Source: Uruburuella testudinis
GTDB lineage: Bacteria; Pseudomonadota; Gammaproteobacteria; Burkholderiales; Neisseriaceae
Assembly (NCBI RefSeq): GCF_022870865.1
Contig: NZ_CP091508.1
Coordinates: 1,488,001 to 1,552,000 of the forward strand
DNA: 64,000 bases
Reading direction: 5' to 3'
Shown: piece after piece, positions 35,188-54,989 of the stretch
How the letters are laid out: each line of letters opens with the position of its first letter
How positions within the stretch are numbered: position 1 is the first letter of the stretch
The notes under the pieces: generated by a model
What the model saw: only the letters and a program-made list of their open reading frames with translations
Database searches by the model: none
Told to the model about the DNA's origin: nothing
Program-made: the position numbers and the translations under genes

Positions 35188-36042
35188 AAAAGGTCAGCGC
35201 GTTGGCGGTCAGCTCGGTGGGGTTGTGGCTGCCGGCATCAAGGCGCTGGCGGCGGTGTGTTGCAGGCGGATATCGCCCGCGGTCGATTGCAGAGTGAGGT
35301 TGCCGCCGGCGCTGAGGGTGTTGCGCCGGCTGTCGGCATAGCTTTGGTTTTGGCTGGCATTGGCGGTTTTAAAGCCGACGCCGGCTTCGGCTTTGGCCAA
35401 TACCGCACCCTGCTGCAAATCATCAGGGTTGACGGCCACGCCGTTTTTAAGGGCATCGGCGGCAACTTTGGTATTGCGGGCGGCGGCATCGGTGACTTTG
35501 CCGACCGCATCGTAAAGCTGATAGCCCTGTGCGGCGGCGGCCATGCCCTGTAGGGCGCGGGTGCGGTCGCCGGCGTTGCTGTCGACGGCATCTTCAACGG
35601 CATAGGCCAGCTCGATCAGCGGCGAAGACACTTTGGCAAAGGTGCCGATTTTAACGTCGCGCTCGGATTGGTGGCTGCTGCCGCGGTTGTAATCGTCGAG
35701 AATGTCGATATTGTTAGCGGTGATGTTGATGTCTTTGGCCGCCGCCACGTCGGCGACTTGTTGAGTATAGCCGGCACCGGCCTGCATATTGACGTTGCCG
35801 CCAAGACTGCCGACTTGTGATTTGACTTGCTCGACTTGGCTGCTGTGGCTGTCTTGACGGTTTTTCATCCAACCGCTGAAATATTCGGTGTCGGAGATTT
35901 GCGCCGAGCCGATGCCGCTGCCCACTTGGGTTTCACTGAGGGATTGGCGGTTTTGGCCGGACAGGATATTGATGTTGCCGGCCGCATTGAGGTTGAGATT
36001 GTTTTGGGCAACGACGGTGCTGCCGATCACATCAATATCGCG
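35188..36042 (-). pseudogene. Mosaic fragment of the tpsA/cdiA gene
   Basis: Most of this stretch (about 35255-36042) is nearly identical in DNA to cdiA at 48615-49401. It encodes the same LSETQVGSGIGSAQISDTEY to TLSAGGNLTLQSTAGDIRLQ region. It has no signal peptide, no toxin end and no start of its own. The left edge is a patchwork of three short cdiA pieces: 35190-35210 matches 38440 onward, 35211-35240 matches 48390 onward, and 35243 onward matches 48604 onward. It is the exhausted end of the cassette array, not an independent gene. Confidence 0.8.
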
Positions 36043-36072
36043 CCCACCTTACGGCTTGCTAAATTTGTTCGA

Positions 36073-36486
36073 TTATTTCATAATACTTAACAATAAGTTG
36101 GTATCATCTATGAAATTAATCAATAAATTCCTAATAATATTTACATTTTTTGTTGTGAATTTACTTGAGTAATAGTGCCCCCCTATAATCACCTCCTTTC
36201 TATCATATTCCTCATTCTCAATCCAGTTTTTTACATCTATATCACCATCATCTGCATATATACTCAATAGCGGTAAATAAATTCCTGAATCATATTCTAC
36301 AGTAAGTTCAAAAATTCCAGTTTCAGGTTCAGGAACAATACTAATTTTTATTACCCCTCTAGTATATTCCAATGTTTTTATTAGTATTTCATTAATAATT
36401 TCTTTTGTTGGATTTGTAAAAACTGGAAATTGTATTCGTTCATTTGCCAATGAAATTCCATATCCACCAAAACTTAATTTTTTCAT
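36073..36486 (-). CDS. Probable immunity protein for the deaminase-type toxin
   Basis: A 137-residue soluble acidic protein starting MKKLSFGGYGISLANERIQF. It begins at 36486, overlapping the toxin stop by ATGA, the tight coupling seen in toxin-immunity pairs. It contains IKISIVPEPETGIFELTVEY and EYDRKEVIIGGHYYSSKFTT, alternating strands and helices, and its DNA is strikingly AT-rich compared with the housekeeping genes. I do not recognise a named immunity family with certainty. The role is inferred from position and size. Confidence 0.7.
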   Translation of the reverse strand: MKKLSFGGYGISLANERIQFPVFTNPTKEIINEILIKTLEYTRGVIKISIVPEPETGIFELTVEYDSGIYLPLLSIYADDGDIDVKNWIENEEYDRKEVIIGGHYYSSKFTTKNVNIIRNLLINFIDDTNLLLSIMK

Positions 36487-38975
36487 TTTTTTTCCTTTAT
36501 TGATTTCATACCTGGTTGCCAATAATAACTTTTTGTCTTGCCAGTTAGATTATCTATCGCTTTAATTGTTAATGTTTTCAAGCCTGCAATTTCGGCGGCT
36601 ACCGCAATATCTCCTTTGCAATAGCTACAAACATCTTTACCTATAACTTCCATACTCATGCTGGCATTTTTAGTTTTACCAGCATTATAAGCTTGCTGTA
36701 TGACCCCAATTTCAGCGTGAGAATCTGCTAATGTATTATTAGGTCTATTTTTTCCATCCTTTGCAATTTTTGCGTTAACTCTATCTGCAATTAAAGTATG
36801 TGTTCTGGGAGAGTTAATTTTTGCAGTTTGATTAACATCGTAAAAGTAATCTTTCCCAATAGATCCTTTCGCACTTACTTGAACAGGTTGATCATTTCTG
36901 ATAGGTAGAATGGACTGAGGTTTGCTACTTCGTATATTTGCCATTTTACCTCCAGCCGTCATTTCTGTTTGAAAACGCGCCTCCTCAAGTGTTTTGCCAT
37001 CCTCAACAGCCCATTGTTGCTGTACCTTAACAAAACCCGTATCACCGTTGTGTATGACCAGGTTTGAGGTCGGCAGCCAGTCTCTTTGTTCTGCCCGAAG
37101 AAATTCAGATCTATCATACGAGGGGAGCACGGATACGATACCCTGCATTTTACTTGCAATGGTATACAGAAGGCCTCGTTCTTCACTTCCTTTTGGCAGT
37201 TTGGCTGCGGCAGCTTCCATTTTTCGGCTGTCAGCTTCGTATTCTCGCTTCAGATTTGCCAATGCCTTTTCTTTGATTGCATGGCTCATATTACTTTGTC
37301 GTATTTTTTGCTCTTCTTGGATAAAGTACTCAATACTATGGGCACCGGATTGCTTAGTAAGTCTATCCAACAGCGCAATTTCTGTTTTAGACAACCAACC
37401 TTTTTGTTTGGCAGTTTGAGAATGTAACCAGTTATTCTCAACCGCATTCTGCGCCACCACACCGCCAATTTGCGCATTCAACCCGGAATCACCGCCTATA
37501 CCGCCTACAAATGCGCCCACCGCCGCACTCAAATCACGGATGGTGGTTTTTTGCTCCTCTGAAAGCAGGTTCGGATGATTGGCTGCTTCTTTGCCGGCCA
37601 GAACTTCTGTGATGACTTTGGCTGTGGCTTCCGCACCTGCGCCCGCCGCGGCACCTGCACCGAAATCGCCGCCGTTGCCCGCGGCTACGATGCCTGCCAG
37701 CAGGGCATGGCTTAACAGTTGTGCCGTTTCATTCGGGTTGCTGCCGTTTTGGCCGAAGGTTTGGCCGATGGTTTCGGCGGCGTAGGGGGAGAGGGTGTTG
37801 GCGGCCGTCTGAAGGCCGTTCTGCCCGCCGAGGGCGCCGGTGACAACGGTGGAAACGGCATTGAGCGCGCGGGCTTTGCTGCCGCCGATGCCCCAATCTT
37901 TGGCGGATTGTTGAGCCTGATTGTATTGTTGTACGGCGGCTTCGATTTGAGCGGCATCGTTGTTTTTGATGGCCGTCTGAAGCTGTTCGTAGGCCTGTTG
38001 TTGCGCTTTCTGCGCTTCCGCCGCCATATTCCCGCTAAACGTGCGCACGGCTGAGGTGATGTCGGCGGTGGCGGATGCTGCGGCCTGCTGGTTGTGCAGA
38101 ATCTGTTGGATATCGGGCAGGGCAGCCAGTTTTTGATGGGCGGTTTCGGTGTCGCTGTTGATGCCCAATGCTTGGGTGGTGGTTTCTTGACCGCCGATAT
38201 TCAGACGGCCTGCGCTTAAAGTAGCACGGGTCATGCTGCTGTCGCTGCCGCTGTCATATTGGGGCAGGGTCGGGCTGTAGCCGGGGCCTTGGCTGATGCT
38301 TTGGCCGGCTACGGCGGATGCTTGGCCGAGGGGGCTTTGTTGGAAGGCTTCGCTGCTGCTGAGCCCGCCGCCGTAGCCGCCGCTCAACCCCACATTCGTT
38401 GCTTTGTAGCTGCTGTGGTTTTGAATATCTTCAAAGGTCAGCGCGTTGGCGGTCAGCCCGTTATTCTCTTTCGCCGCGGTCGAGGCAATCGCGCCGCCTT
38501 TGAGCTGCACGCTGCCGGCGTTGATGTGGTAGCCGCCGTCGCCGGCAAACAGGCCGGATTGGGTGTGGACGGTATTGCTGCTGCCCGAAGCTTTGCTTTG
38601 GTTGAAATTGCCGGAAGCTTCCCAGGCGCTGCCGAGGGCGATTTGTATTCTGGCACCGGCGCCGCTTTGTTTGCTGGTTTGCGACAGCGTATCTTGCACG
38701 CTTTCGATATTCAGACGGCCTTTAACATCGGTATCGATGCGGTTGGCGGTGACGGTGGCGCCGCGTAAAGTGGTGTCGCCTTGGCTGTTGAGGCGGATGT
38801 GGTCGGCTTCAAGGGTGATGTGGCTTTCGGCAAGGTAATAATTTTTGCCTTTTCTATCACTGACCTCGCCGTAAATATAGACGCCGACGCAAAAATAAGA
38901 AATGCCGTTTGAAAAGATTGTTTTCAGACTGCTTGATTTCATTGAAGTAAAGATGAAATAAAGCCGTGTGGCCAA
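36483..38975 (-). CDS. Displaced CdiA tail cassette with deaminase-type toxin
   Basis: An 830-residue frame that lacks signal peptide and secretion domain. From about 38820 downwards it follows cdiA closely (HIRLNSQGDTTLRGATVTAN onwards, through the AVENN pretoxin motif). After VENN comes a linker (WLHSQTAKQKGWLSKTEIAL to ARFQTEM) shared with the 43675-45789 cassette. The last ~150 residues are new: a cytidine-deaminase-like zinc site with HAEIGVIQQA near residue 753 and KDVCSYCKGDI near 783 (HAE ... CxxC). This suggests a nucleic-acid or nucleotide deaminase toxin. The first ~50 residues (MATRLYFIFT...) are not cdiA-like and probably not a real N-terminus. Confidence 0.8.
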   Translation of the reverse strand: MATRLYFIFTSMKSSSLKTIFSNGISYFCVGVYIYGEVSDRKGKNYYLAESHITLEADHIRLNSQGDTTLRGATVTANRIDTDVKGRLNIESVQDTLSQTSKQSGAGARIQIALGSAWEASGNFNQSKASGSSNTVHTQSGLFAGDGGYHINAGSVQLKGGAIASTAAKENNGLTANALTFEDIQNHSSYKATNVGLSGGYGGGLSSSEAFQQSPLGQASAVAGQSISQGPGYSPTLPQYDSGSDSSMTRATLSAGRLNIGGQETTTQALGINSDTETAHQKLAALPDIQQILHNQQAAASATADITSAVRTFSGNMAAEAQKAQQQAYEQLQTAIKNNDAAQIEAAVQQYNQAQQSAKDWGIGGSKARALNAVSTVVTGALGGQNGLQTAANTLSPYAAETIGQTFGQNGSNPNETAQLLSHALLAGIVAAGNGGDFGAGAAAGAGAEATAKVITEVLAGKEAANHPNLLSEEQKTTIRDLSAAVGAFVGGIGGDSGLNAQIGGVVAQNAVENNWLHSQTAKQKGWLSKTEIALLDRLTKQSGAHSIEYFIQEEQKIRQSNMSHAIKEKALANLKREYEADSRKMEAAAAKLPKGSEERGLLYTIASKMQGIVSVLPSYDRSEFLRAEQRDWLPTSNLVIHNGDTGFVKVQQQWAVEDGKTLEEARFQTEMTAGGKMANIRSSKPQSILPIRNDQPVQVSAKGSIGKDYFYDVNQTAKINSPRTHTLIADRVNAKIAKDGKNRPNNTLADSHAEIGVIQQAYNAGKTKNASMSMEVIGKDVCSYCKGDIAVAAEIAGLKTLTIKAIDNLTGKTKSYYWQPGMKSIKEKK

Positions 38976-39005
38976 TAAGTGTCCACCCTATGTCCGTTTC
39001 GCTTG

Positions 39006-39491
39006 TTAGATTTCATTAAGAAAATCGGGATTTTCAAATAATTTGTAGATAAAGCTTTGAATTGAAACTGCTAATGGAGTTTCCATATCCCATATCCAAT
39101 ATACTGGCTGTTTAGGCTTATCTACATCTCGTATATCAAAACAAATAAAATACTCACTAAATCTTTCAAAAAAAGGTATTTGATATGGCTCAAGAGTAAA
39201 TTCAGGAGATACTTGTTCAGACTCTCCCGTCAATATATCTACAATAGATAACGGATCCATAATGCGATTATCTGACCCTGTGCGTATACTCTCACTTTTA
39301 CTAATAGTAAGAAAGCCATAACCAATTTCGTTCCAGAAATTTGATAAATCGGACGGTATCGTAATATGTTTTGTTAATTCTAGAAAGTCATTTTCTGGAA
39401 CTTTAAAAAACAAATTTTTATTTACCATAATCGGTATATATTCATCACTATCTTTCATAATGATTGAAGCATTTTTTATTAGTTCAAACAT
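39006..39491 (-). CDS. SMI1/KNR4 (SUKH)-type immunity protein
   Basis: A 161-residue soluble protein. FLELTKHITIPSDLSNFWNE then IGYGFLTI is the typical SUKH-family start (a helix, P-x-D-L-x-x-F, then G-x-G-x-L), and YFICFDIRDVDKPKQPVYWI with W-D fits the rest of the fold. SUKH proteins often protect against secreted nuclease toxins. It starts 11 bp after the HNH-type cassette stop, so it is its probable immunity partner. Confidence 0.8.
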   Translation of the reverse strand: MFELIKNASIIMKDSDEYIPIMVNKNLFFKVPENDFLELTKHITIPSDLSNFWNEIGYGFLTISKSESIRTGSDNRIMDPLSIVDILTGESEQVSPEFTLEPYQIPFFERFSEYFICFDIRDVDKPKQPVYWIWDMETPLAVSIQSFIYKLFENPDFLNEI

Positions 39492-39502
39492 TTATCTAAT
39501 CC

Positions 39503-40646
39503 TTATTTTCTCTGAATATTTCTTAATGGACCATCCCAGCGATGAATACCCCCTTGGTGTTGGTCCGGGTATCTTGCAGGAGTGATATTTTGCCAAATAT
39601 TACCACCATTATTTTCCAAAGGCTGAATATGATGTACATCATATTTGGAGCCTACTCGTTTTATGATTCTTCCAGTTTTTGAAGATATCACAGGCTCAGT
39701 ATAGGTTGGCCATTTTAGCCCCGTATTTACTTCCCACTTTTTAATTAAACTTTCCCTCTTTCTATTAAACTCAGTTCGTCTCTGATGAAGTGTTTGTGAT
39801 GACGGTGTAAATACACCATTAGCCCTAATATAATCAGTTAATCCTATTCTCTGAGAAAATTCAATTTTATACCCAGTTTGAGCTTGAATGTCATTTAAAT
39901 ACTCCCTGATGTTAAGTGCTCTGTTAACAACTTGGCCAGGGGTACTATAACTCTGATAAATGCCATTAAATCTGGCAACATATTCAGCCTGACTCCTTCC
40001 TCTCGGCTGTGTTCTTAAAAATTCAGCAAATGCTCTCATTTGAGCAACTTCAGCAGAGGTAACAATTCCCCTGCCTTCGGAGTCTACATTTCTAGCTGTT
40101 GGAAATCCGTTGAAATTAGGAATAAATGAGCGGACTTGAGCAAATTGAAGATTGTACGCAGCAATGTTGAGGTCATTGCGTATTAATTGTGGCGTTCTAA
40201 ACCCGCGCCCAGCCTGGTTGTTTTCAGCAGCATTCTGCCCAATCACTCCCGAAATCTGCGCATTCAACGCCGCACCGCCGTTTCCGGTCGCGCCGACGAT
40301 GGAGGCAATCACACCGGTAGTCGATTTGATTTCGTCTTTAATGTGTTCAGGCAACAGGTTGGGGTTGAATTCACCCGTTTGCGGGTCGATGGCGGTGTAG
40401 CCGTCGTTATATTGCTGGCTCAGATATTGCGCGGCTTTTTCGGCTGTAACCGCTGCCGATCCGCCGCTTAATGGGTCGCCGCTGTTAATATAGCTTAAGG
40501 TTGCGCCCAAGAGGAAGTGGCCGACCATTTGTGCGGCTTCGTTTTGGTTTTCTCCGTGGCCGAAGGTGTTGCCGATGGCGGCTGCGGCGTAGGGAGACAG
40601 GGTGTTGGCGGAGGTTTGCAGATTGGTTTGGCCGCCGAGAATAAGG
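39503..40646 (-). CDS. Displaced CdiA tail cassette with HNH-type nuclease toxin
   Basis: The frame enters from cdiA-like sequence at about 40646 (LGGQTNLQT then ANTLSPYAAAAIGNTFGHGE), without start, signal or secretion domain; the first ATG is at 40528. The pretoxin motif is AENN instead of VENN. The tail (~220 residues) ends with a metal-nuclease pattern, KYDVHHIQPLENNGGNIWQN followed by DQHQGGIHRWDG, typical of HNH/endonuclease VII-like toxins (D-HH, N, then H). It is followed at once by a SUKH-type immunity gene. It is probably a silent donor unless recombined into cdiA. Confidence 0.8.
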
Positions 40647-40648
40647 CC

Positions 40649-40948
40649 TTAATCTTCCTCACTCCAATATGGTAAATTATCCCATCCCAATAAAAAGAAT
40701 AATGATGAAGCTATAAAAATAATTCCCATCTGTTTTAAACTAGATAAATCTATTCTGCCAATTAGAAAAATTATTAGTAAAAATTCTAATTGGAATATTA
40801 TAAAAATAAATATATTAGCTATAATTAATTGACTTTTATTTCTTATTTTAAAAAACTTTTTAATTAGAAATAAATTAAAATATACTATAGCTGGAATTAA
40901 AAGAGCTATTCCGTATAAAGTTCGTCTATTTTCTTTAAATTTAATCAT
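40649..40948 (-). CDS. Small membrane immunity-like protein
   Basis: A 99-residue protein with three clear membrane helices: TLYGIALLIPAIVYFNLFLI, LIIANIFIFIIFQLEFLLII with FLIG, and MGIIFIASSLFFLLGW. Short, very AT-rich, and placed 8 bp after the cassette at 40957-42063. Immunity proteins against membrane-acting toxins are themselves membrane proteins, so this fits a partner of an ionophore-type CdiA tail. No homologous family is recognised. Confidence 0.68.
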   Translation of the reverse strand: MIKFKENRRTLYGIALLIPAIVYFNLFLIKKFFKIRNKSQLIIANIFIFIIFQLEFLLIIFLIGRIDLSSLKQMGIIFIASSLFFLLGWDNLPYWSEED

Positions 40949-40956
40949 AAAAATAC

Positions 40957-42063
40957 CTATTTTTTCTGTATATTCTTTCTCATATCTGGAACTTCTATAA
41001 GAATGATATCTCTTTTTTCTAGAAACTTTGATGCAGTCCCACTACCTGCTTTTCCCACACCATATTGAATATATAGAGATGGAATAATAAGGCTATTCTT
41101 CATTATTTTATTTGCTTTTAAATCATCACTTCTTACATTAGACCATTTGAACATACTTTCAGAAGCCTTGCTTAAGCCTTTACCAACTAAAATCCCTAAA
41201 CTTGCATCATAAGATAAATCAGATACTTTATATGGCTTACCTTCTATAATTACTGTAGTAATAACACCTTGGCCAACAGAAGATAAAGCAGCAATAGCAT
41301 AAGATTTTCCTCCAATTGCTACAATAGGCAGTGCTAAAGAACCGTATACTAGATTTTCAACACCTGTATGTTGTCTTAAGCCATATCCTTGCAGATATTT
41401 ATTAACTTCTTTATTAGCTTCTTCAATTGTTTTTCCACTTTCCAATTGTTGCTTGTAAAGTGATACAGCTCCTTTTAAGGATTCAACTCCTACATTTCCT
41501 CCCATCAAAGATTCGTATCCACTTAATTGGTTATTCTCAACCGCATTCTGCCCAATCACCCCGGCAATCTGCGTATTGAGCGCTGCACCGCCATCACCGG
41601 TTGCACCCACCAAAGCCGCAATCACGCCCGTGGTGGATTTGATTTCGTCTTTCACGCTTTCGGGCAGCAGATTCGGATTGAATTCGCCCGTAACCGGGTC
41701 TCTTGCGGTTTGGCCGTCGTCGTATTGCCGGCTCAGATATATTGCGGCTTTTTCAGCGGCTACGGCTGCGCTGCCGCCACTGAGTGCATTCCCGCCGTTG
41801 ATGTAGGCCAGGGTTGCGCCTAAGGCGAAATGGCTGACTGCTTGGGCGACTTCGTTTTTGTCGGCGCCGTGGCCGAATTGTCGGCCGATGGCGGCGGAGG
41901 CGTAGGGGGCGAGGGTGTTGGCGGCAACCTGTATATCGGTTTGGTCACCGAGCGCGCCGGTAATCAGGGCGGAGGCGGCATTTAATGCGCAGCTGTTGCT
42001 GCCGCCGATGCCCCAGTCGCGGGCTTTATTATAGGCCGTCTGAAAGTTTTCGCTGTTGTTCAA
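40957..42063 (-). CDS. Displaced CdiA tail cassette, possible membrane-acting toxin
   Basis: A 368-residue frame. The first ~180 residues follow cdiA (DWGIGGSNSCALNAASALIT then LLPESVKDEIKSTTGVIAAL, ending at AVENN). The tail of ~185 residues is unlike the others and carries hydrophobic stretches such as LVYGSLALPIVAIGGKSYAI with AALSSVGQGVITTVI. This and its membrane-protein partner suggest a pore-forming or ionophore toxin, but no active-site motif is evident. The end (RDIILIEVPDMRKNIQKK) is basic. The cassette has no start signal of its own; the sequence upstream (42064-42078) breaks off cdiA homology. Confidence 0.68.
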   Translation of the reverse strand: MNNSENFQTAYNKARDWGIGGSNSCALNAASALITGALGDQTDIQVAANTLAPYASAAIGRQFGHGADKNEVAQAVSHFALGATLAYINGGNALSGGSAAVAAEKAAIYLSRQYDDGQTARDPVTGEFNPNLLPESVKDEIKSTTGVIAALVGATGDGGAALNTQIAGVIGQNAVENNQLSGYESLMGGNVGVESLKGAVSLYKQQLESGKTIEEANKEVNKYLQGYGLRQHTGVENLVYGSLALPIVAIGGKSYAIAALSSVGQGVITTVIIEGKPYKVSDLSYDASLGILVGKGLSKASESMFKWSNVRSDDLKANKIMKNSLIIPSLYIQYGVGKAGSGTASKFLEKRDIILIEVPDMRKNIQKK

Positions 42064-42078
42064 TAGGAAATTGGTTTC

Positions 42079-42456
42079 TCAGCTTCGTGAGTAATTGAAA
42101 TCATAATGCTCAAATTTTATATCTTCCATAAATAAAGACGATAATAAAACTTTTATTCTTTCAAATCTATCATAAATATCAGCTTCTGTATTTTTACAAT
42201 TTACTGAATTAATTGAAAATAGTTGCCAATTTGGAACCATTAGTAATTCTACTATTCTCATAATTCCAATCAAAATATCTTGAGGTAGAAATTTTTCTTC
42301 ATTATATTTTTTTGATATTTCTAACAAATCCTGTTCTAATTTCCAATATTCATTATCATCCCATGCACCATAATCTAGCCATTTTCCAATAAAAGAATCC
42401 TCATTGTATTCTGTATAGTAAGTTATATTTCTATAAAAATCCTTGAAATTGCTCAT
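42079..42456 (-). CDS. Probable immunity protein for the Ntox21-like toxin
   Basis: A 125-residue soluble acidic protein starting MSNFKDFYRNITYYTEYNED; another ATG four codons earlier is possible, but GGAG at the right distance favours 42456. It begins one base after the toxin stop. FIGKWLDYGAWDDNEYWKLE is reminiscent of the Imm41-type immunity family, which I would want checked. The AT-rich coding sequence and lack of uptake sequences suggest horizontal origin. Confidence 0.72.
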   Translation of the reverse strand: MSNFKDFYRNITYYTEYNEDSFIGKWLDYGAWDDNEYWKLEQDLLEISKKYNEEKFLPQDILIGIMRIVELLMVPNWQLFSINSVNCKNTEADIYDRFERIKVLLSSLFMEDIKFEHYDFNYSRS

Positions 42457-42457
42457 A

Positions 42458-43285: not shown

Positions 43286-43312
43286 CCACCCATAAAGAAG
43301 GGCATTTAATTT

Positions 43313-43672
43313 CTAAATATTTTCAAAATTTATCCAGTCATTAATATATTTTAACGATATGTGATCTAAATTATTTTTAATTAATGGCCAAGAGTTGTTT
43401 TCTTTTGAGTAGTTATACATGGATTCTAATAGTCCAGTAGCAATATAGTTTTTAAGAACTTCTTCTCCATTTGACATGCCATCTTTAATGTAAGCAAATA
43501 TATATATACGATCATTTTTGGAAAGTTCTGATAGGTTTATTGCTATTGTTCTACCTATTTCACCAAAAAGCATTACTGGTAAATCATCTCCCCATTCATC
43601 AATGAAATTGTTAATTGCAAGTGATATTTGAGATATGGTTTTAATTTTTTTTAAAAATTGATCGTGATTCAT
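43313..43672 (-). CDS. Probable immunity protein for the GSTADA-type toxin
   Basis: A 119-residue soluble acidic protein (MNHDQFLKKIKTISQISLAI, then WGDDLPVMLFGEIGRTIAIN and LLESMYNYSKENNSW). It begins two bases after the toxin stop at 43675, the spacing expected for a cassette immunity gene. No named family is recognised with confidence. The DNA is AT-rich, as in the other immunity genes here. Confidence 0.72.
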   Translation of the reverse strand: MNHDQFLKKIKTISQISLAINNFIDEWGDDLPVMLFGEIGRTIAINLSELSKNDRIYIFAYIKDGMSNGEEVLKNYIATGLLESMYNYSKENNSWPLIKNNLDHISLKYINDWINFENI

Positions 43673-45789: not shown

Positions 45790-45822
45790 AGTGATTCGTT
45801 ATTGATTGCCATCGAATTCCCT

Positions 45823-46080: not shown

Positions 46081-49000
46081 TTTACTCTGTCCAAAATATT
46101 GTGGATATTCTTATCAAAATATGACTTTCCATATGTTGTAACTAGCTGCCCATTTTTATTGATTACTACCGCTGCGTCTTGTGAGAGAAATAAAAATCCT
46201 CCATTACTTTGTTTGAGAATTAAACTAGGGTTTTGTACGGTGTCTATAACTTGGCTTGAAGTTACTCCTCGCTCTATTTTTCTATCAATATAATGTTTTC
46301 TTAACCCTGAAATTTGTATATTGGGATTTTTAATTACTACTCCTAACTTGCCAAAATTTTGCCCATGCAATTGTAACTCTTTTTCCTTCTGAGCTAACTG
46401 CCTAAAATTATTCGGCAATTTTTCAGCATTTCTCGCCAATTCCAGCAGCTCCTTGGCTGCCTTCAAATCCCCCGTTTCTTTGGCAGCCTGGTAAGCTTTC
46501 CTAAAGTCACCTATGTATCGTACTTTTTCTGCCTGTTTCAAACCCGGCATGGCAAAAATGGTAGCGATAGCGTACTCGGAAACCGTATCCGCTTCTTTAA
46601 AATCACGAATAGTACCGACAACTGACAAATCCCCCAAAAACTGAGCAACTGCATGGGTAAGCTTGGTGTTGGCTGCAATTTGCTCGGGCGTATAGCCGCT
46701 AGCCATCAACACGGCGGCATCAGTAGAACTGTATTCCTGATTATGAGCATTTTTGGCTTCTTGGCTCATACCGTATTGCTGAAGATAGCCAACGCTTAAT
46801 CCGCCCATGGCTATTGTGGCTTCCCGTTTCAAATTCAGGCATTGGGTGGATTGGGCATTCTGGCAAGCAGTTAAAAGGCGCAAGTCTCTTGCGACATCAA
46901 GGGCTTTTAACTTATCTCTTTCTGCACAGGCTTGTGTCAAGCCGGCTCCTCCATTACAGGCTTTTCCCAGCTGGATTAGGCGCTCGACTTCAGGAGACGA
47001 AAGCCAGTTATTCTCGACCGCATTCTGCCCGACCACACCGCCACGCTGGATATCTGCCGCTGAGCCGCCGGAGAGGCCTGAAGCCAATGCGCCCACTGCC
47101 GCACTCAAATCACGGATGGTGGTTTTTTGCTCCTCTGAAAGCAGGTTCGGATGGTTGGCTGCTTCTTTGCCGGCCAGAACTTCGGTGATAACTTTGGCAG
47201 TCACTTCCGCACCTGCGCCCGCCGCGGCACCTGCGCCGAAATCGCCGCCGTTGCCCGCGGCTAGAATGCCTGCCAGCAGGGCATGGCTTAACAGTTGTGC
47301 CGTTTCATTCGGGTTGCTGCCGTTTTGGCCGAAGGTTTGGCCGATGGTTTCGGCGGCGTAGGGGGCGAGGGCGTTGGTGGCCGTCTGAAGGCCGTTCTGC
47401 CCGCCGAGGGCGCCGGTGACAACGGTGGAAACGGCATTGAGCGCGCGGGCTTTGCTGCCGCCGATGCCCCAATCTTTGGCGGATTGTTGAGCCTGATTGT
47501 ATTGTTGTACGGCGGCTTCGATTTGAGCGGCATCGTTGTTTTTGATGGCCGTCTGAAGCTGTTCGTAGGCCTGTTGTTGTGTTTTCTGCGCCTCTGCCGC
47601 CATATTGCCGCTGAACGTGCGTACGGCTGAGGTAATGTCGGCGGTGGCGGATGCTGCGGCCTGCTGGTTGCGCAGAATCTGTTGGATATCGGGCAGCTCG
47701 GCGAGTTTCTGATGGGCGGTTTCGGTGTTGCTGTGGATGCCCAGTGCTTCTACTGTGGTTTGCTCGCCGCCGATATTCAGACGGCCTGCGCTTAAAGTAG
47801 CGCGGGTGGTGCTGCTGTCGCCGCCGCTTTCATATTGCGGCAGGGTCGGGCTGTAGCTCGGGCCTTGGCTCATACCTTGGCCGGCCGTGGCGGAGGCTTG
47901 GCCGAGGCTGCTTTGTTGGAAGGTTTCGCCGCTGCTGAGGCTGCCGCCGTAGCTGCCGCTGAGGGAAACGCTGAAGGCGTTATAGCTGCTGTGGTTTTGA
48001 ATGTCTTCAAAGGTCAGTGCGCCGGTGGTCAGCCCGTTATTCTCTTTCGCCGCGGTCGAGGCAATCGCGCCGCCTTTGAGCTGCACGCTGCCGGCGTTGA
48101 TGTGATAACCGCCGTCGCCGGCAAACAGGCCGGATTGGGTGTGGACTGTATTGCTGCTGCCCGAGGCTTTGCTTTGGTTGAAATTGCCGGAAGCTTCCCA
48201 GGCGCTGCCGAGGGCGATTTGTATACGTGCACCGGCGCCGCTTTGTTTGCTTTCTTGCGACAGCGTATCTTGCACGCTTTCGATGTTCAGACGGCCTTTA
48301 ACATCGGCATCGATGCGGTTGGCGGTGGCGGTGGCGCCGCGTAAAGTGGTGTCGCCCCGGCTGTTGAGGCGGATGTGGCCGGCGTTCAGCTCGGTGGGGT
48401 TGTAGCTGCCGGCATCGAGGCGGTGGCGGCCTTTGGTGGCGCCGGCTTCGGCGTAAACATAGATGCCGGTTTGCGCGCCCACTGAGGCGCCGACGCCGAC
48501 GGAAGCGCCGAAGCTGCTGTTTTTGCCGTCGCTGTGTTGGCTGCTGCGGCCGGATTCGAGGCTGATGTCTTTTGCCGAATCGAGGCTGAGGGTGCCGCCC
48601 GCGCTGGCGGCGGTGTGTTGCAGGCGGATATCGCCCGCGGTCGATTGCAGAGTGAGGTTGCCGCCGGCGCTGAGGGTGTTGCGCCGGCTGTCGGCATAGC
48701 TTTGGTTTTGGCTGGCATTGGCGGTTTTAAAGCCGACGCCGGCTTCGGCTTTGGCCAATACCGCACCCTGCTGCAAATCATCAGGGTTGACGGCCACGCC
48801 GTTTTTAAGGGCATCGGCGGCAACTTTGGTATTGCGGGCGGCGGCATCGGTGACTTTGCCGACCGCATCGTAAAGCTGATAGCCCTGTGCGGCGGCGGCC
48901 ATGCCCTGTAGGGCGCGGGTGCGGTCGCCGGCGTTGCTGTCGACGGCATCTTCAACGGCATAGGCCAGCTCGATCAGCGGCGAAGACACTTTGGCAAAGG

Positions 49001-52000
49001 TGCCGATTTTAACGTCGCGCTCGGATTGGTGGCTGCTGCCGCGGTTGTAATCGTCGAGAATGTCGATATTGTTAGCGGTGATGTTGATGTCTTTGGCCGC
49101 CGCCACGTCGGCGACTTGTTGAGTATAGCCGGCACCGGCCTGCATATTGACGTTGCCGCCAAGACTGCCGACTTGTGATTTGACTTGCTCGACTTGGCTG
49201 CTGTGGCTGTCTTGACGGTTTTTCATCCAACCGCTGAAATATTCGGTGTCGGAGATTTGCGCCGAGCCGATGCCGCTGCCCACTTGGGTTTCACTGAGAG
49301 ATTGGCGGTTTTGGCCGGACAGGATAGTGATGTTGTCGGCTGCATTGAGGCTGAGGGTGTTTTGGGCAACGATGGTGCTGCCGATCACATCAATATCGCG
49401 CCCGCTTTGCAGCGCCGCCGCCCCGCCGACGGAAAGGCTGCTGCCGGTGAGGTGGTTCAACGCGCCTTCACCTTGGCCGCGCTCGTTGAAACTGCCCAGC
49501 GGCATCAGGTGGTCGCGGTTGTCGATGCTCAAACCGCTGCGGCGGCTTTGGGCGCTTTGGTTTTGACCGTCGGCGGCAAAGCCGAGGCGGATGCTGTCGC
49601 GGGCGGAGAGCAGCGCATCGCCCTCGGCGCTGATTTGCGCGCCTTCGCTGCGGATGCCGCCTTCGGTGGCGATAATGTTCAGGTGTTGACCCGCCGCCAA
49701 TTCGCTCACCACCGCTTGGGTGCGGCTGTTGTTTTGTTCGGCAGATGATTTGCTGCGCCCGCCGCTGACCACCAACGGCGTCATCGCCGCCTGAGCGGCT
49801 TTGAGGGCCGCCAGATCGCGGGCAAACCAAGTGCCCACGGCGCTGCCGCTGTTTTGGCTGCCGGCCATGGATTGGTCGTAAGCGGTTTTGGCGGCGGCAA
49901 TGGGGTTGTAGGTGACCCCGATGCTGAGGCCGCTCTGCTTGCTTTGCTGCTCGCTGCGGCTGCTGTCGGTGATATACGCCGCATCAAGGTTGACTGCGCG
50001 GCCTTGCAGGTTTAAATCGCCGCCGGTATTCAGACGGCCTGCGCTGATGTTGAGCGCGTCGCCTGCGAGGAGTGCGGTGTTGCCTGTGCTGCTGCCGATT
50101 CGGCTGAGGGTGAGGCTTTGGCTTGTGCCGTCTTGTTGCAGGCTGTGGCGGGATTTGCTGTAGCCGACGGCAGCAACGCCGTTTGCAAGCGAGGCAGTGA
50201 AACCGGAGCGCTTACGCTCGTGAAACTCATGATCCGAATACGCATTCTCAGCCGCGGTGATGTTGACATCATTGCCGGCCGTCAACACCGTGAGGCCGTC
50301 TGAAACCACCCGGCTGCCGCGCACATTTACATCCTGCCCGGCACGAACCACCACTTCCTTACCCTCGATGCTGCTGCCGACCGCTTCATCATGTTGGCGG
50401 CGGTATTGGTCGAGCGAGGTTGTTTTAGAAACCATGCTGCGTGATTCGTTGTACAGCGAGTCGTCTAAATCCAGCGTTTGCCGGCCTTCGCTGATGTCGA
50501 CATTGCGGCCGGAGAGGGTGGTGCGGCCGCCGTCGCCGGCAATGCTGCCTTGGCGGATGGTCAAATCATCTTTGGCCGAAATCAGAATATCGCCCGCCGC
50601 ACCGATAACGGTGCCGGCTTCCGAAGTTTGGGCAACGTGGCGGTGGTTGCGGTCGGAGAGTTCACCCTGTTTGCTGTGGGATGAAAGCTTGGCGGTGCCT
50701 AAATCGATGTGGCCGTCTGAAACGATTTGCGTTTGGCCGTTGGCGGCTTCGTTGCGCAGATTGGCGGCGACGAAATCGATATTTTCGTTGGCTTTGAGGC
50801 TTAAGCGGCCGTCTGAAGCGTTGTTGACATACAAAGCGGCGACGCGGTCGATTTGGGTTTGGCCGTTGCGCTCATCGCCGCCGGTGGCGGTGGTGGAGGC
50901 GATGCGGAGGCGGTCGGCTTCGACGGCGAGGAGGGTGTCGGCGGAAACGGTGCCGCCTTCGATATGGACATCATCGGCGCGCAACCCGACCTTGCCGCCT
51001 TGGATAAGGCCGCTGTTTTTAATATCGGTTGCGGATAAGTCGACCACTTTGCGTCCGGCCAGCGTGCCGCTGTTGATGATGCTGCCCGCGCTGTCCATCG
51101 CCAGCTTGTCGGCACTAATCAAACCGCCGTGGGCCGTGAGGTCATCAGGTTTAACGGTAAGATAGACTTTAGGCGCCAATACTTCGACGGTGCTGCCGTC
51201 AATCAGGGTGAGGGTTTGGGTTTCCAACCAAACGATGTCGCTGGTCAAACGGGCGATTTGTTCGGCGGAAAGCTTGATGCCGGGGCTGAGTTGCTGCTCG
51301 CGGGCAAAGGTAATGCCGGCGCTCATCAGGGCTTGGTATTGCGCTTCGTCGCTTTGGTAGCCGTCGAGACGGCGGTAGCCGGTGAGGCGGGCAATTTGCT
51401 CGTTTATCAGCTTTTGCTCGTAATAGCCGTCGCCCAAGCGCTTGTGTATATTGTTGGGGTCGATATTGAGGGCGTTGAGCATGTAATCGCTGCCCAGCCA
51501 TTGCTTGTTGTTGGTAAAGGCGGGGTCGGTTTCCACCCAATAGGCGGGGTTGGCCGGGTTGACGGTGTAGAGGCCGGAGGCGGGCAGCTTGGTGTCGGTG
51601 TTTAGGGTGTTGATGGGGGCAGTGCTGCTGCCGCCGCCGGTTACGGTGCTTGGGCGGGTTATGGCTTGGGCGGCGGTTTTTTCAGGTGGGGGTAGGGCGT
51701 TGCCGTATTCCTTCACTTCGGCCGTCTTAAGCTCAAAGTCGGGATGGCTATCCGGCGGGCTGGGAATGTGGCCGCTTTCTTTGTCGAATTCGATATGCCG
51801 GTCGCCTCTGAAACCGTGTTTGTCGTAACTGCCGCGCCGCAGCATGCCGGTGTTGACGGTGCGGACGGTGTCTTTGTCTGCCTCGTTCCGGATATTTCCC
51901 TTACCTAAAATCGCACCGCCGCTCAGTATCATACTGTTGTGGTTTAGCCAATTGCCTTCGGCTTGCAGGTTGCCGCCGACCAGAATGTGGGCCGGGCGGT

Positions 52001-54989
52001 TGTCGATGATTTGCTGCTTATAAACGTTTTGAACGTAATCGGCTTGGTAATATTGCTCGACTGCGTATTTGTGCAGCCATTGTTCGGGGCGGCCGTCGTG
52101 GTAGATAAAGCCGAAATCATGTTTTTCTTTGCGGGTGACGCCGTCTTCGCCTACCGTAAAGAATGGCTCGGCTTCTCCGGCTTTGGTATAGGAAACAATA
52201 TGCTTGCTGCTGTCTAAATATTCGCGGGTGCGGAAATGGTTGTTTAGGTTTTGCAAGGATTTAACGCCGATTCGCGCGTCTGCGCCGGCTTCAATCGTGG
52301 CGCCGGCATTCACCAAACGATCAGCCAAACCCTGCGCCTGATGGCTCTCGTTTAATTCGAGGCCGATATTCAAACTGCCTTCAGAGGAAAGCTTCGCGCC
52401 TTCCTGATTGGTGATGTCTTTGGCTCCAATCGCCAAATGCTCGCGCGCGGCAACGGTTGCCGCTTTGGTTTCGCCGTTAACCGTTTCTTCCCGGTTCACC
52501 AGCTTAGCCGCTTCAATGCCGACCCAATCACCGTATACGCGCCCCGTACCGATATTCGATACGGTGCCGCCTGCTTCCAGCAGGGTGAGGCCGTTGCTGT
52601 TGATGAGGCCGCGGTTGGTGATGTTGTTGGCTTGAAGGTGCGTGTCGCTGCCGGATTGGATTTGACCCGTATCCGTATTGTTGATGCGCCTGGCTTCCAG
52701 CCGCACAAAGCGGCCGCCTGCCAAGGTGTGGCTGTTGTTGATGTCGCCTTCGCTGCTTAAGCGCAAGCCTTGCCCGGCGCGAATGTCTTGTTCGGCGCTG
52801 AAGCTGTCTTTGAGGTTGAGCGACAGATTCTGATTGGCCGCCAGCGCGCCTTGTTTGGCTAAGGTTTTGGCTTGCAGATCGAGGTTTTGCCCGGCAAGGA
52901 TTTCGCCGGAAGCGTTGTTCAGCGCTAAGGTTTGCTGGTTGCCGTCATGGATTTTGACGTCTTTGGCCGAGCTGATGAGGCCGCTTTGGTTGTTGAGGCC
53001 GTCTGAAACCTTGAGTTCGGTTGCCTCATCGCTGCGGATTTTGCCTTGATGGTTGTTAAGCTCGGTTGCTTCGACTTTCAGACGGCCTGTGTCGATTTGG
53101 CCGTTTTGGTTGTCGAGGGTTTGCACGGCACGGATGAGGGCATCTGGTGCGGCGGTTTGGCCGCTTCGGTTATTGAAATTTTGGCTGTTGATGCGGAGGC
53201 TGCCGGCCGATTGCAGTGTGCCGTTTTGGTTGCTCAGCGTTTGGGCGCGGAGGATGAGGCCGTCTGAAGATAAGAGACTGCCGCTGCGGTTGTTGAGCGT
53301 GTCAACCGCGATGTCGGCGCTGCCGCTGCGGATGCTGCCGTTTTGGTTGTTTAGCAGGCTGCCTTGTGCGCTCAGGCGGTGAAGGTTTAAAACCCCCTGA
53401 TTGTGCAAACTGCGGCGGCTGCTCAAAGCGACGTCGCCGTTGGCTGTGATTCGGCCGCGGTTGTCGAGGCCGTCTGAAACGGCGATGCGGCCGGCGGCCA
53501 ATGTTAACGGTGCAGCGGCGGGCGCGGTTTGGGTGCTGCCGTTACCGGCCGCGGTGGTGGGGGCAGGGGTGTTGCTGCTGTGATTGTTATTGCCGCTGCT
53601 GTTGTCGTTATCGTTATCGTTGTTGCCGCTGTCGGCCGGTGTGGCGCCGATTAAGCCGCTGCTGTGGTTGCGTATGCTGCCGGCACTGACGGCCAGAGCC
53701 TGCAAACCGGTTTGGGTAATCGTGCCGCTGTTGTTCAGACGGCCGGTTTCGATGTCGAACCGGGCGGCGTTGATGCGGCCGCTGTTGTTCAGATGGCCTG
53801 AATTGCGGATATCCAGCCCGCCGGCAGCGGCCAGCAAACCGCTGTTGTTGAAAGAGGCCGTCTGAATATTGGTGCGCCCTTGCGCGGAAATGCTGCCGCT
53901 GTTATCCAATGCGGTTGCTTTGACGGTAACGGCGGCACTGTCGGCGGCACCTTGGGTGTTGTTTGAGGCCACCATGCTGCCGCTGTTGCCGATGTTGCCG
54001 TCGGCGCTGAGCGTTACCCCGCCGGCAGCGGCAAAGATTTGCCCGGCATTGTGGATACCGACGCCTTTGTCGGTGCTGATTAAGGTAATCTTGCCCGCAT
54101 ACATGCCGCCCAATGCGCCGGTATCAATGGCGACTTTGGCGGTGTCGGCTGCGGGCGGGAGGCCGTCTGCAACAGCCCCGGGCACACCGTCGGCGCCCAT
54201 ATCATGATTACCTGCCGCCACTTGCAAATCATTCGCCCAAATGCCGGCATTCACCGCGGCGGCCTGCGCCAGAATGCGGGTGTAGTCGGCACCGGCGGTA
54301 TCCAAACCCCTGCCCTCTACCGCCACACGGCCGCCGCGCACCCGGAAGCCTTCCAGATGACCGTTGTTTAGCAGCGGTTTGCCTGTGGTGAGGGTGACCC
54401 CCGCCGCATTGATAAAGCCGCCGCCGTTCACCCGAATCCCCGCCGGGTTGGCCATCACCACCTCTGCGCGGCGGCCGGCGACCTCGATATAACCGTTGAG
54501 CAACGACGGATTGGCGCTGTTGACTTGGTTTACAATCACCCGCGCTTCGCCGCCGGCCAGCCACGGATTACCCTGCACCCAACCGCCCAGCTGCGTTTGC
54601 ACGTTGCGGCGGCTGTTGTTGAGCACCGCCCCTTTGCCGTCGACATCGAATTGGCGGTATTGGTTGACCGACACGCCGCCGGCAGAGGGCGTTTGAATAT
54701 TCACCTGCGGCAAACCGTTGGCCGTTTGCAGCACGGTCGGCTGCTGGTTTTGAGGGGCGGATTTGTCGGCGCCAATACCGGCGGCACGGGCAGGAAGCAC
54801 CAGCGCCAACCCCAAAGCCATCATCAATGAGAAACGCCACAGCGGCAACCGGAATGAGGCTGCCGCCGGCTGCGGTACGGCACCGCCGCCGTCTTGCGCA
54901 GACTTGCCCGCGCGGGCGGCGTTTTCAGCAACGGCAACCATGATGCCGCGTTTTTGATTGAAGATGACTTTGTAGAGGGTTTTGTTCAT
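46077..54989 (-). CDS. TpsA/CdiA-type contact-dependent inhibition exoprotein
   Basis: A 2970-residue secreted adhesin-toxin. An extended signal peptide occupies residues 1-~70 (MNKTLYKVIFNQKRGIMVAV, then a hydrophobic LMMALGLALVLPARA). The two-partner secretion domain follows (~75-330), with NSANPSLLNGYIEV and VVMANPAGIRVNG as the recognition motifs. A long filamentous-haemagglutinin repeat body is rich in NNSG/LNNQNG; near residue 455 lies a Asp/Asn/Ser/Gly low-complexity patch. AVENN (near 2657) marks the pretoxin. The tail of ~309 residues ends in HYIDRKIERGVTSSQVIDTV then AAVVINKNGQLVTTY, a pattern of BECR-fold RNases. Upstream is the TpsB transporter; downstream the immunity gene overlaps. 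Confidence 0.93.
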   Translation of the reverse strand: MNKTLYKVIFNQKRGIMVAVAENAARAGKSAQDGGGAVPQPAAASFRLPLWRFSLMMALGLALVLPARAAGIGADKSAPQNQQPTVLQTANGLPQVNIQTPSAGGVSVNQYRQFDVDGKGAVLNNSRRNVQTQLGGWVQGNPWLAGGEARVIVNQVNSANPSLLNGYIEVAGRRAEVVMANPAGIRVNGGGFINAAGVTLTTGKPLLNNGHLEGFRVRGGRVAVEGRGLDTAGADYTRILAQAAAVNAGIWANDLQVAAGNHDMGADGVPGAVADGLPPAADTAKVAIDTGALGGMYAGKITLISTDKGVGIHNAGQIFAAAGGVTLSADGNIGNSGSMVASNNTQGAADSAAVTVKATALDNSGSISAQGRTNIQTASFNNSGLLAAAGGLDIRNSGHLNNSGRINAARFDIETGRLNNSGTITQTGLQALAVSAGSIRNHSSGLIGATPADSGNNDNDNDNSSGNNNHSSNTPAPTTAAGNGSTQTAPAAAPLTLAAGRIAVSDGLDNRGRITANGDVALSSRRSLHNQGVLNLHRLSAQGSLLNNQNGSIRSGSADIAVDTLNNRSGSLLSSDGLILRAQTLSNQNGTLQSAGSLRINSQNFNNRSGQTAAPDALIRAVQTLDNQNGQIDTGRLKVEATELNNHQGKIRSDEATELKVSDGLNNQSGLISSAKDVKIHDGNQQTLALNNASGEILAGQNLDLQAKTLAKQGALAANQNLSLNLKDSFSAEQDIRAGQGLRLSSEGDINNSHTLAGGRFVRLEARRINNTDTGQIQSGSDTHLQANNITNRGLINSNGLTLLEAGGTVSNIGTGRVYGDWVGIEAAKLVNREETVNGETKAATVAAREHLAIGAKDITNQEGAKLSSEGSLNIGLELNESHQAQGLADRLVNAGATIEAGADARIGVKSLQNLNNHFRTREYLDSSKHIVSYTKAGEAEPFFTVGEDGVTRKEKHDFGFIYHDGRPEQWLHKYAVEQYYQADYVQNVYKQQIIDNRPAHILVGGNLQAEGNWLNHNSMILSGGAILGKGNIRNEADKDTVRTVNTGMLRRGSYDKHGFRGDRHIEFDKESGHIPSPPDSHPDFELKTAEVKEYGNALPPPEKTAAQAITRPSTVTGGGSSTAPINTLNTDTKLPASGLYTVNPANPAYWVETDPAFTNNKQWLGSDYMLNALNIDPNNIHKRLGDGYYEQKLINEQIARLTGYRRLDGYQSDEAQYQALMSAGITFAREQQLSPGIKLSAEQIARLTSDIVWLETQTLTLIDGSTVEVLAPKVYLTVKPDDLTAHGGLISADKLAMDSAGSIINSGTLAGRKVVDLSATDIKNSGLIQGGKVGLRADDVHIEGGTVSADTLLAVEADRLRIASTTATGGDERNGQTQIDRVAALYVNNASDGRLSLKANENIDFVAANLRNEAANGQTQIVSDGHIDLGTAKLSSHSKQGELSDRNHRHVAQTSEAGTVIGAAGDILISAKDDLTIRQGSIAGDGGRTTLSGRNVDISEGRQTLDLDDSLYNESRSMVSKTTSLDQYRRQHDEAVGSSIEGKEVVVRAGQDVNVRGSRVVSDGLTVLTAGNDVNITAAENAYSDHEFHERKRSGFTASLANGVAAVGYSKSRHSLQQDGTSQSLTLSRIGSSTGNTALLAGDALNISAGRLNTGGDLNLQGRAVNLDAAYITDSSRSEQQSKQSGLSIGVTYNPIAAAKTAYDQSMAGSQNSGSAVGTWFARDLAALKAAQAAMTPLVVSGGRSKSSAEQNNSRTQAVVSELAAGQHLNIIATEGGIRSEGAQISAEGDALLSARDSIRLGFAADGQNQSAQSRRSGLSIDNRDHLMPLGSFNERGQGEGALNHLTGSSLSVGGAAALQSGRDIDVIGSTIVAQNTLSLNAADNITILSGQNRQSLSETQVGSGIGSAQISDTEYFSGWMKNRQDSHSSQVEQVKSQVGSLGGNVNMQAGAGYTQQVADVAAAKDINITANNIDILDDYNRGSSHQSERDVKIGTFAKVSSPLIELAYAVEDAVDSNAGDRTRALQGMAAAAQGYQLYDAVGKVTDAAARNTKVAADALKNGVAVNPDDLQQGAVLAKAEAGVGFKTANASQNQSYADSRRNTLSAGGNLTLQSTAGDIRLQHTAASAGGTLSLDSAKDISLESGRSSQHSDGKNSSFGASVGVGASVGAQTGIYVYAEAGATKGRHRLDAGSYNPTELNAGHIRLNSRGDTTLRGATATANRIDADVKGRLNIESVQDTLSQESKQSGAGARIQIALGSAWEASGNFNQSKASGSSNTVHTQSGLFAGDGGYHINAGSVQLKGGAIASTAAKENNGLTTGALTFEDIQNHSSYNAFSVSLSGSYGGSLSSGETFQQSSLGQASATAGQGMSQGPSYSPTLPQYESGGDSSTTRATLSAGRLNIGGEQTTVEALGIHSNTETAHQKLAELPDIQQILRNQQAAASATADITSAVRTFSGNMAAEAQKTQQQAYEQLQTAIKNNDAAQIEAAVQQYNQAQQSAKDWGIGGSKARALNAVSTVVTGALGGQNGLQTATNALAPYAAETIGQTFGQNGSNPNETAQLLSHALLAGILAAGNGGDFGAGAAAGAGAEVTAKVITEVLAGKEAANHPNLLSEEQKTTIRDLSAAVGALASGLSGGSAADIQRGGVVGQNAVENNWLSSPEVERLIQLGKACNGGAGLTQACAERDKLKALDVARDLRLLTACQNAQSTQCLNLKREATIAMGGLSVGYLQQYGMSQEAKNAHNQEYSSTDAAVLMASGYTPEQIAANTKLTHAVAQFLGDLSVVGTIRDFKEADTVSEYAIATIFAMPGLKQAEKVRYIGDFRKAYQAAKETGDLKAAKELLELARNAEKLPNNFRQLAQKEKELQLHGQNFGKLGVVIKNPNIQISGLRKHYIDRKIERGVTSSQVIDTVQNPSLILKQSNGGFLFLSQDAAVVINKNGQLVTTYGKSYFDKNIHNILDRVK

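What the first reader, a model, noticed from the sequence alone, without database searches (positions are those of the whole stretch)
35188..54989. A store of five alternative toxin tails, each with its immunity gene, behind a single expressed cdiA
Downstream of cdiA (on the minus strand) lie five promoterless, signal-less frames that begin inside cdiA-like DNA and end in five different tails (GSTADA-type, Ntox21-like, membrane-type, HNH, deaminase). Each is followed within 0-11 bp by a small, AT-rich, immunity-like gene. With the resident BECR-like tail and its overlapping immunity gene this gives six toxin-immunity pairs in one locus. TpsA loci with silent cassettes are known in Neisseria; the combination of tails here is what may be new. 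The cdiA-like stretches give ready homology for swapping the tail of the expressed gene.
Basis: partly seen in the sequence, partly recalled or inferred. Interest (0 to 1): 0.75.

Follow-up and report, generated by a model that had tools for sequence, protein, structure and literature searches.

The report
Neisseria store of spare toxin tails
Behind the gene for a large toxin that one bacterium uses against its neighbours lie five spare toxin ends, each with its antidote-like gene; this is a known kind of Neisseria gene store, but this genome also keeps two further stores far from any working copy of the toxin gene.

Summary
The observation largely holds. On the minus strand, tpsB (cdiB), a 2970-aa tpsA (cdiA) and an overlapping immunity-like gene are followed by five 5'-truncated frames with five different tails, each with a small AT-rich gene at most 11 bp on. 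A tail-less tpsA fragment closes the array. The genus is Neisseria. The layout is that of meningococcal TPS islands (tpsC cassettes plus IORFs; PMC3848433), where tail exchange is proven but rare: a new member of a known kind. Corrections: four, not five, cassettes show cdiA DNA homology, only c5 over a long stretch (1385 bp, 90.9%); a second tpsBA with cassettes lies elsewhere in the genome. Support for exchange: the membrane-type pair (c3) sits on full-length TpsA in two other Neisseria genomes, though the other four tails were not seen so; three unrelated tail groups show the same duality; the end fragment is a mosaic of cdiA and a remote array. Most unusual: two arrays far from any TPS domain, one of 30 kb with 13 pre-toxin domains between identical insertion sequences. 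Of 75 pre-toxin domains in 8 single-contig Neisseria genomes, 17 lie over 60 kb from a TPS domain, 16 of them here.

The parts
55037..56821 (-). tpsB/cdiB, outer-membrane transporter, 594 aa
   Evidence: Pfam ShlB 1.2e-103 plus two POTRA families above cut-off
46077..54989 (-). tpsA/cdiA, full length, 2970 aa: ESPR signal, TPS domain, haemagglutinin repeats, PT-VENN, DUF6862 and tail T0
   Evidence: Pfam; TPS domain in own genome
46080..46409 (-). resident toxin tail T0, last 110 aa; family unknown
   Evidence: no toxin family in Pfam; none of 138 candidates scored E <= 0.001; weak relatives in 2 other Neisseria genomes; single-sequence model of the 127-aa stretch 46080-46460, mean pLDDT 49.6
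45823..46080 (-). immunity-like gene I0, 85 aa, overlaps cdiA by 4 bp
   Evidence: position only; 25% GC; no I0 relative beside the two T0 relatives
43675..45798 (-). cassette c1, GSTADA-type tail; 5' arm 95.5% identical to c5 (419 bp) and 82.9% to cdiA (445 columns)
   Evidence: 61 relatives of the tail among 304 candidates, mostly Rhs-type or CDI/FHA-type by Pfam domain or name; AlphaFold model pLDDT 79.6, no PDB match with E <= 0.001
43313..43672 (-). immunity-like gene I1, 119 aa, DUF7674
   Evidence: Pfam 1.6e-7; beside the T1 tail also in G041 and Xanthomonas sp. Leaf148
42458..43312 (-). cassette c2, Ntox21 tail; no VENN and no cdiA DNA homology
   Evidence: Pfam Ntox21 4.3e-30, DUF6862 5e-4 below cut-off
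42079..42456 (-). immunity gene I2, Imm41
   Evidence: Pfam 2.9e-33; beside the T2 tail in G005 and G015
40957..42078 (-). cassette c3, membrane-type tail T3
   Evidence: PT-VENN 3.3e-5; one borderline hydrophobic segment; same tail on full-length TpsA in G001 and G035
40649..40948 (-). immunity-like gene I3, 99 aa, three hydrophobic segments
   Evidence: beside T3 tails in G001, G035, G012 and own array D
39503..40648 (-). cassette c4, HNH-type nuclease tail
   Evidence: Pfam HNH 0.025, below cut-off; PDB 8cm0 Rhs-family protein 2.2e-5 over 30 residues; 75% identical tail in G003
39006..39491 (-). immunity gene I4, SUKH family
   Evidence: Pfam SUKH_6 4.1e-6; 72% identical and adjacent in G003
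36483..38987 (-). cassette c5, deaminase tail; arm 37428-38811 is 90.9% identical to cdiA over 1385 columns
   Evidence: Pfam Deam_C 3.3e-51
36073..36486 (-). immunity-like gene I5, DUF6911
   Evidence: Pfam 5.7e-23 (longer TTG-start form scanned); beside T5 tails in G015, G039 and G070, partial match in G025
35204..36048 (-). tail-less tpsA fragment closing the array; mosaic of cdiA-like and array-B-like DNA
   Evidence: 99.0% to cdiA over 803 bp; site pattern

Best explanation
This is a two-partner-secretion (CDI) island of a Neisseria species, of the tpsB-tpsA-(IORF-tpsC)n type. TpsB would export TpsA, whose tail after the VENN motif is delivered into neighbouring cells, while the overlapping small gene protects the producer (inferred from the family). 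The five truncated frames are tpsC cassettes: they lack the ESPR signal and the TPS domain (shown), so they should not be exported as they stand (inferred). They are earlier or acquired tails kept with their immunity genes (inferred). The immunity genes probably act now as a library against neighbours' toxins (inferred). The tails are raw material that can enter tpsA by homologous recombination in the cdiA-like arms, from the same chromosome or from DNA taken up by transformation (traces of recombination shown here; the event itself shown by others in meningococci).
For: Domain make-up of cdiA and tpsB. 5 of 5 cassettes without ESPR or TPS domain in Pfam. DNA homology to cdiA upstream of VENN in 4 of 5, best c5. 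Tail/immunity pairs adjacent in other genomes for 5 of 5 cassettes. The c3 tail is on frames that carry a TPS domain in G001 (3039 aa) and G035 (1920 aa). 59 tails of 30 aa or more were compared (62 frames from 65 of the 73 places); besides c3, three tail groups occur both on cassettes and on full-length frames. Mosaic end fragment: array-B-like at 7 of 7 informative sites in nt 47-105, cdiA-like at 12 of 12 in nt 340-800 (1 in 50,388 for this order). Uptake sequences AGGCCGTCTGAA: 66 in the window, none in 6379 nt of tails and immunity genes. 4 of 6 small genes have a Shine-Dalgarno-like site, 0 of 5 cassettes. dN/dS between species is 0.10-0.31 for tails T2-T5 and 0.10-0.14 for I1, I2 and I4.
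Against: No two strains of this species could be compared, so no swap at this locus was seen. In 83 Neisseriaceae genomes only T3 of the five stored tails was found on a TpsA frame; T5 relatives in 1451- and 1459-aa frames of two other-genus genomes and a weak T4 match in a 1417-aa frame of G037 were not examined. Relatives of T2 and T5 in other Neisseria sit on MafB-like or HINT-like sequences instead (labels recalled). c2 and c4 share no exact stretch over 11 bp with cdiA. By my test cdiA and tpsB also lack a Shine-Dalgarno-like site, so its absence in cassettes proves little. dS is near saturation in the between-species comparisons, and I3 has dN/dS 0.71. No expression data.
Confidence: 0.88

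Rival explanations
1. The array is chiefly a collection of immunity genes; toxin tails are passengers and swapping is incidental. (This overlaps with the best explanation and differs in emphasis.)
For: Shine-Dalgarno-like sites on 4 of 6 small genes and 0 of 5 cassettes. In G041 the relative of the c1 tail is split over two frames while the I1 relative matches over 115 of 119 residues without a stop. Arenas 2013 favours this use, and Poole 2011 reports that an orphan CdiI is made while the orphan toxin does not appear to be (passages).
Against: Tails T2-T5 are intact and show dN/dS of 0.10-0.31 between species, which passengers would not need unless they are used somewhere; cassette/full-length duality of tails.
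Confidence: 0.4
2. The frames are decaying leftovers of displaced tails without present function.
For: Arms start at irregular points; c2 has no VENN and no cdiA arm; the array ends in a tail-less fragment.
Against: The five tails are open to their stops; tail/immunity adjacency kept in 5 of 5; dN/dS well below 1 for the four tails tested (T1 not tested).
Confidence: 0.08
3. The cassettes are independent toxins translated from internal starts.
For: Each frame holds a possible start codon.
Against: No Shine-Dalgarno-like site at the first start of any of the five (but none at cdiA or tpsB either), no ESPR or TPS domain, no excess of promoter-like sites.
Confidence: 0.04

Closest known systems
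Meningococcal TPS islands with tpsC cassettes and IORFs (Arenas et al. 2013, PMC3848433; abstract, Background, sections 6, 8, 10 and part 1 of 2 of the Discussion read)
   Same: tpsB-tpsA followed by 5'-truncated cassettes with unrelated tails, each with its small gene; similarity upstream of VENN; uptake sequences mostly at the 5' ends of cassettes; the same tail as cassette in one genome and on tpsA in another.
   Different: Another species and tail set; a tail-less fragment closes the array; a second tpsBA of another type; two remote arrays without a TPS domain, one between two identical insertion sequences. (I saw no description of the last in the parts read.)
Orphan cdiA-CT/cdiI modules of CDI loci (Poole et al. 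2011, PMC3150448; passages read)
   Same: Orphan toxin/immunity pairs behind cdiBAI, varying amounts of cdiA DNA before VENN, some orphans interrupted by insertion sequences.
   Different: In the passages read the arrays follow the cdi genes; here two arrays lie hundreds of kb away.
MafB/MafI islands with silent mafB-CT cassettes (Jamet et al. 2015, PMC4287609; passages read)
   Same: Silent C-terminal cassettes with immunity genes in Neisseria; relatives of tails T2 and T5 sit on MafB-like or HINT-like sequences in other genomes (labels recalled).
   Different: The window gene is a TPS/FHA protein, not MafB.
CDI ionophore toxins (PMC11630599; passages read)
   Same: Candidate class for tail T3: partner gene with three hydrophobic segments.
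   Different: No comparison with that family was run; T3 has one borderline hydrophobic segment.

Membership tests
Neisseria TPS island with tpsC/IORF cassettes | tpsB and tpsA directly upstream of the cassettes, same strand | tested here: met
Neisseria TPS island with tpsC/IORF cassettes | cassettes lack the 5' part of tpsA (signal and TPS domain) | tested here: met
   5 of 5 without ESPR or TPS domain
Neisseria TPS island with tpsC/IORF cassettes | cassettes share tpsA sequence upstream of VENN | tested here: met
   4 of 5 cassettes; c2 fails
Neisseria TPS island with tpsC/IORF cassettes | each hypervariable tail keeps its own IORF | tested here: met
   5 of 5 cassettes adjacent elsewhere; the resident pair was not found elsewhere
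Neisseria TPS island with tpsC/IORF cassettes | same tail as cassette in one genome and on tpsA in another | tested here: met
   1 of the 5 stored tails: T3 in G001 and G035; three other tail groups in the genus
Neisseria TPS island with tpsC/IORF cassettes | exchange between strains of one species | not testable with these tools
   one genome per species is held
CDI system with orphan cdiA-CT/cdiI modules | growth inhibition on contact and specific protection | not testable with these tools
   needs experiments
MafB island | MafB-type secreted gene instead of TPS/FHA gene | tested here: not met
   full-length gene has TPS, ESPR and haemagglutinin repeats
CDI ionophore toxins (tail T3) | C-terminal five-helix membrane bundle | not tested
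   no structure model of T3 was made
BECR-type nuclease (resident tail T0) | BECR fold | tested here: inconclusive
   no Pfam match; model pLDDT 49.6

The most novel reading that the evidence does not exclude
The genome runs a two-level store: two secreted TpsA genes with local cassettes, and two remote arrays without a TPS domain (B at 1.019-1.072 Mb, D at 2.404-2.435 Mb) that act as donor banks, as pilS does for pilE. Because the donors are remote, a tail could be copied into tpsA without deleting the immunity genes in between, the drawback noted by Poole et al. for local arrays. Array D, about 30 kb with 13 PT-VENN domains between two identical same-direction insertion sequences, could move as a composite transposon.
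Probability: 0.25. Interest if true: 0.68.

Novelty: new member of a known kind. Interest (0 to 1): 0.42.

Why it matters
It extends the meningococcal tpsA/tpsC model to another Neisseria species and shows tails that sit on a cassette in one genome and on the full-length gene in another. The remote arrays bear on an open question: how a cell can change its toxin tail without losing the immunity genes in between. Strains of this species with and without array D would test that directly.

Tried and rejected
Rejected: MafB island; independent toxins; decay only. A structure match for the c1 tail failed: 0 PDB hits with E <= 0.001. NCBIfam matched none of the tails or immunity genes above its cut-offs. 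PDB sequence searches with the six tails gave nothing firm except a 30-residue Rhs match for c4; c2 matched 4ntq at E 0.23 only (that 4ntq is a 16S rRNA nuclease of Enterobacter cloacae is recalled). The N. weixii array at 996-1012 kb was considered as another remote array and set aside: prophage-like genes adjoin it and a TPS domain lies 47-59 kb away. One dN/dS row (I5 against G039) was out of frame and dropped. Eight of the 73 places were left out and 3 of the 65 tried gave no frame, the window's own cdiA tail among them (it was searched by itself); 3 of 62 frames were too short to compare. The G012 frame at C37:5241 runs off its contig, so whether it is a cassette is open. The 60-kb limit for 'remote' was set after seeing the data; counts at 30, 60 and 100 kb are 24, 17 and 17 of 75, with 16 in this genome each time. 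Paper searches touching cassettes, orphan modules, islands or transposons; among the rows listed I saw no paper that plainly describes a remote tpsC array, but I read few of them and subscription papers are not held. PMC6350997 (search listing and start of abstract only) reports a CDI system on a transposon in Burkholderia.

Full report
What is there. The window is 64 kb of a single-contig 2.95-Mb genome. On the minus strand lie tpsB (55037-56821; ShlB with POTRA domains), a 2970-aa tpsA (46077-54989; ESPR, TPS, haemagglutinin repeats, PT-VENN, DUF6862) and an 85-aa gene overlapping its end. Then come five truncated frames with five unrelated tails, each followed by a small gene of 20-30% GC. 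The order is: GSTADA-type/DUF7674, Ntox21/Imm41, membrane-type/three-segment hydrophobic protein, HNH-type/SUKH, deaminase/DUF6911. The array closes with a tail-less tpsA fragment (35204-36048).

How far the cdiA homology goes. blastn of the array against cdiA: c5 90.9% over 1385 columns up to VENN; c1 82.9% over 445 plus two shorter blocks; c3 blocks of 149 and 63; c4 125 at 70%; c2 none. Cassettes also match each other: c1 and c5 95.5% over 419, c1 and c4 88.3% over 426. So c1 looks like a mosaic. Longest exact matches to cdiA are 35, 11, 20, 11 and 201 bp for c1-c5. In meningococci, laboratory exchange used identities of 5-23 bp within a homologous region (PMC3848433), so short arms do not exclude exchange.

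The pairs are real. For each of the five cassettes, tail and small gene lie next to each other elsewhere: T1/I1 in G041 and Xanthomonas sp. Leaf148; T2/I2 in G005 and G015; T3/I3 in G001, G035, G012 and the own genome; T4/I4 in G003; T5/I5 in G015, G039 and G070, with a partial I5 match in G025. The resident pair has no such support: weak T0 relatives in G020 and G043 have no I0 beside them. In 83 Neisseriaceae genomes, own genome included, the tails were found in 2 (T1), 3 (T0), 4 (T4), 11 (T5), 7 (T2) and 5 (T3) genomes. The T1 tail has 61 relatives among 304 candidates, mostly Rhs-type or CDI/FHA-type proteins.

Evidence for exchange. The T3 tail, a cassette here, is on a full-length frame with a TPS domain in G001 (3039 aa, 52% identity) and G035 (1920 aa, 46%). 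The other four stored tails were not seen on a TpsA frame; long frames with T5 relatives in two genomes of another genus and a weak T4 match in G037 were not examined. Among 59 tails compared from 11 genomes, three other tail groups are both cassette and full-length: a G003 cassette with a G043 full-length gene (47%; a G012 relative runs off its contig); G013 and G021 cassettes with a G021 full-length gene (53% and 64%); G012 and G041 cassettes with a G041 full-length gene (82% and 74%). Inside this genome, the tail region of the second TpsA matches a cassette in array D at 92.2% over 1559 columns, with a dip in the middle and 66-74% in the last three blocks. The 803-bp end fragment of the window array differs from cdiA at 8 sites, all in the first 105 nt; at 7 of these it equals array B, and at 12 later sites it equals cdiA against B. 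If order were random, this pattern has a chance of 1 in 50,388; whether cdiA or the fragment was changed cannot be told.

Beyond the window. The genome has two TPS domains. Locus C (679-692 kb) holds a second tpsBA with DUF637-type pre-toxin and its own cassettes, and its array too ends in a fragment that stops soon after VENN. Array B (1018.9-1024.0 and 1064.0-1072.1 kb) holds cassettes with stretches up to 98.4% identical to the window array, split by a prophage that I call Mu-like from reading its frames (no family search was run); its tails include LHH nuclease and Ntox17. Array D (2404.6-2434.7 kb) holds 13 PT-VENN domains and segments 97.0% and 95.5% identical to C over 2566 and 2392 columns. 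It lies between two identical 1120-bp elements in the same direction, each with one long frame and 27-28-bp inverted ends, taken to be insertion sequences; one further full copy was found in the genome. Neither B nor D has a TPS domain within 300 kb (from the coordinates).

How unusual. TPS domains were found in 21 of 46 genus genomes and PT-VENN in 17 of 46. Eight of the 17 are single-contig. They hold 75 listed PT-VENN domains, of which 17 lie more than 60 kb from a TPS domain: 16 here (3 in B, 13 in D) and one in G043. At 30 kb the count is 24, the extra ones being 2 in G041 and 5 in G042. PT-VENN misses some cassettes (c2 and c4 here), so array sizes are lower bounds.

Function. Mechanism steps inferred from the family: export by TpsB, delivery of the tail after VENN, protection by the adjacent gene. 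Shown by others in meningococci: growth inhibition by TpsA, immunity by the IORF, and rare tail replacement in clinical isolates (PMC3848433). A 2022 review repeats the immunity view (PMC9263626, passages). My sequence evidence fits both uses: tails T2-T5 stay open with dN/dS of 0.10-0.31 between species, dS near saturation, and 4 of 6 small genes have Shine-Dalgarno-like sites against 0 of 5 cassettes. By the same test cdiA and tpsB have none, so this point is weak. Uptake sequences are absent from 6379 nt of tails and immunity genes; at the window's rate this has Poisson probability 0.0014, but their AT-rich make-up alone would lower the expectation.

Verdict. The locus is an ordinary, well-preserved member of a known kind. 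What goes beyond the descriptions I read is the genome-wide arrangement with two remote arrays, one of them framed by insertion sequences. That they serve as donor banks is a hypothesis.

Noticed in passing
G000:C1:2403477-2435910 (loci L113, L105, L106): About 30-kb array of DUF637-type cassettes with 13 PT-VENN domains and no TPS domain, bracketed by two identical same-direction 1120-bp insertion-sequence-like elements.
   Followed up: partly
G000:C1:1018947-1072125 (loci L031, L033, L034): Second remote array, of the window's type, split by a prophage (Mu-like by reading only); tails include LHH nuclease and Ntox17.
   Followed up: partly
G000:C1:679099-692537 (locus L104): Second tpsBA locus with DUF637-type pre-toxin and its own cassettes, also closed by a fragment that stops soon after VENN.
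   Followed up: partly
G042:C1:996748-1021000 (loci L044, L116): In N. weixii too, prophage-like genes similar to those in array B adjoin a cassette array (by reading of frames).
   Followed up: no
locus L060:3588-4372 (G041): A relative of the c1 tail lies in two frames while its immunity gene matches over 115 of 119 residues.
   Followed up: no
loci L107, L108, L111: Relatives of tails T2 and T5 sit behind HINT-like or MafB-like sequences, so toxin modules seem to pass between TpsA and MafB stores (labels recalled, no family search run).
   Followed up: no
G000:C1:2379379-2391333 (locus L114): A 3984-aa autotransporter-like frame lies about 12 kb before array D (judged from its ends only).
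   Followed up: no
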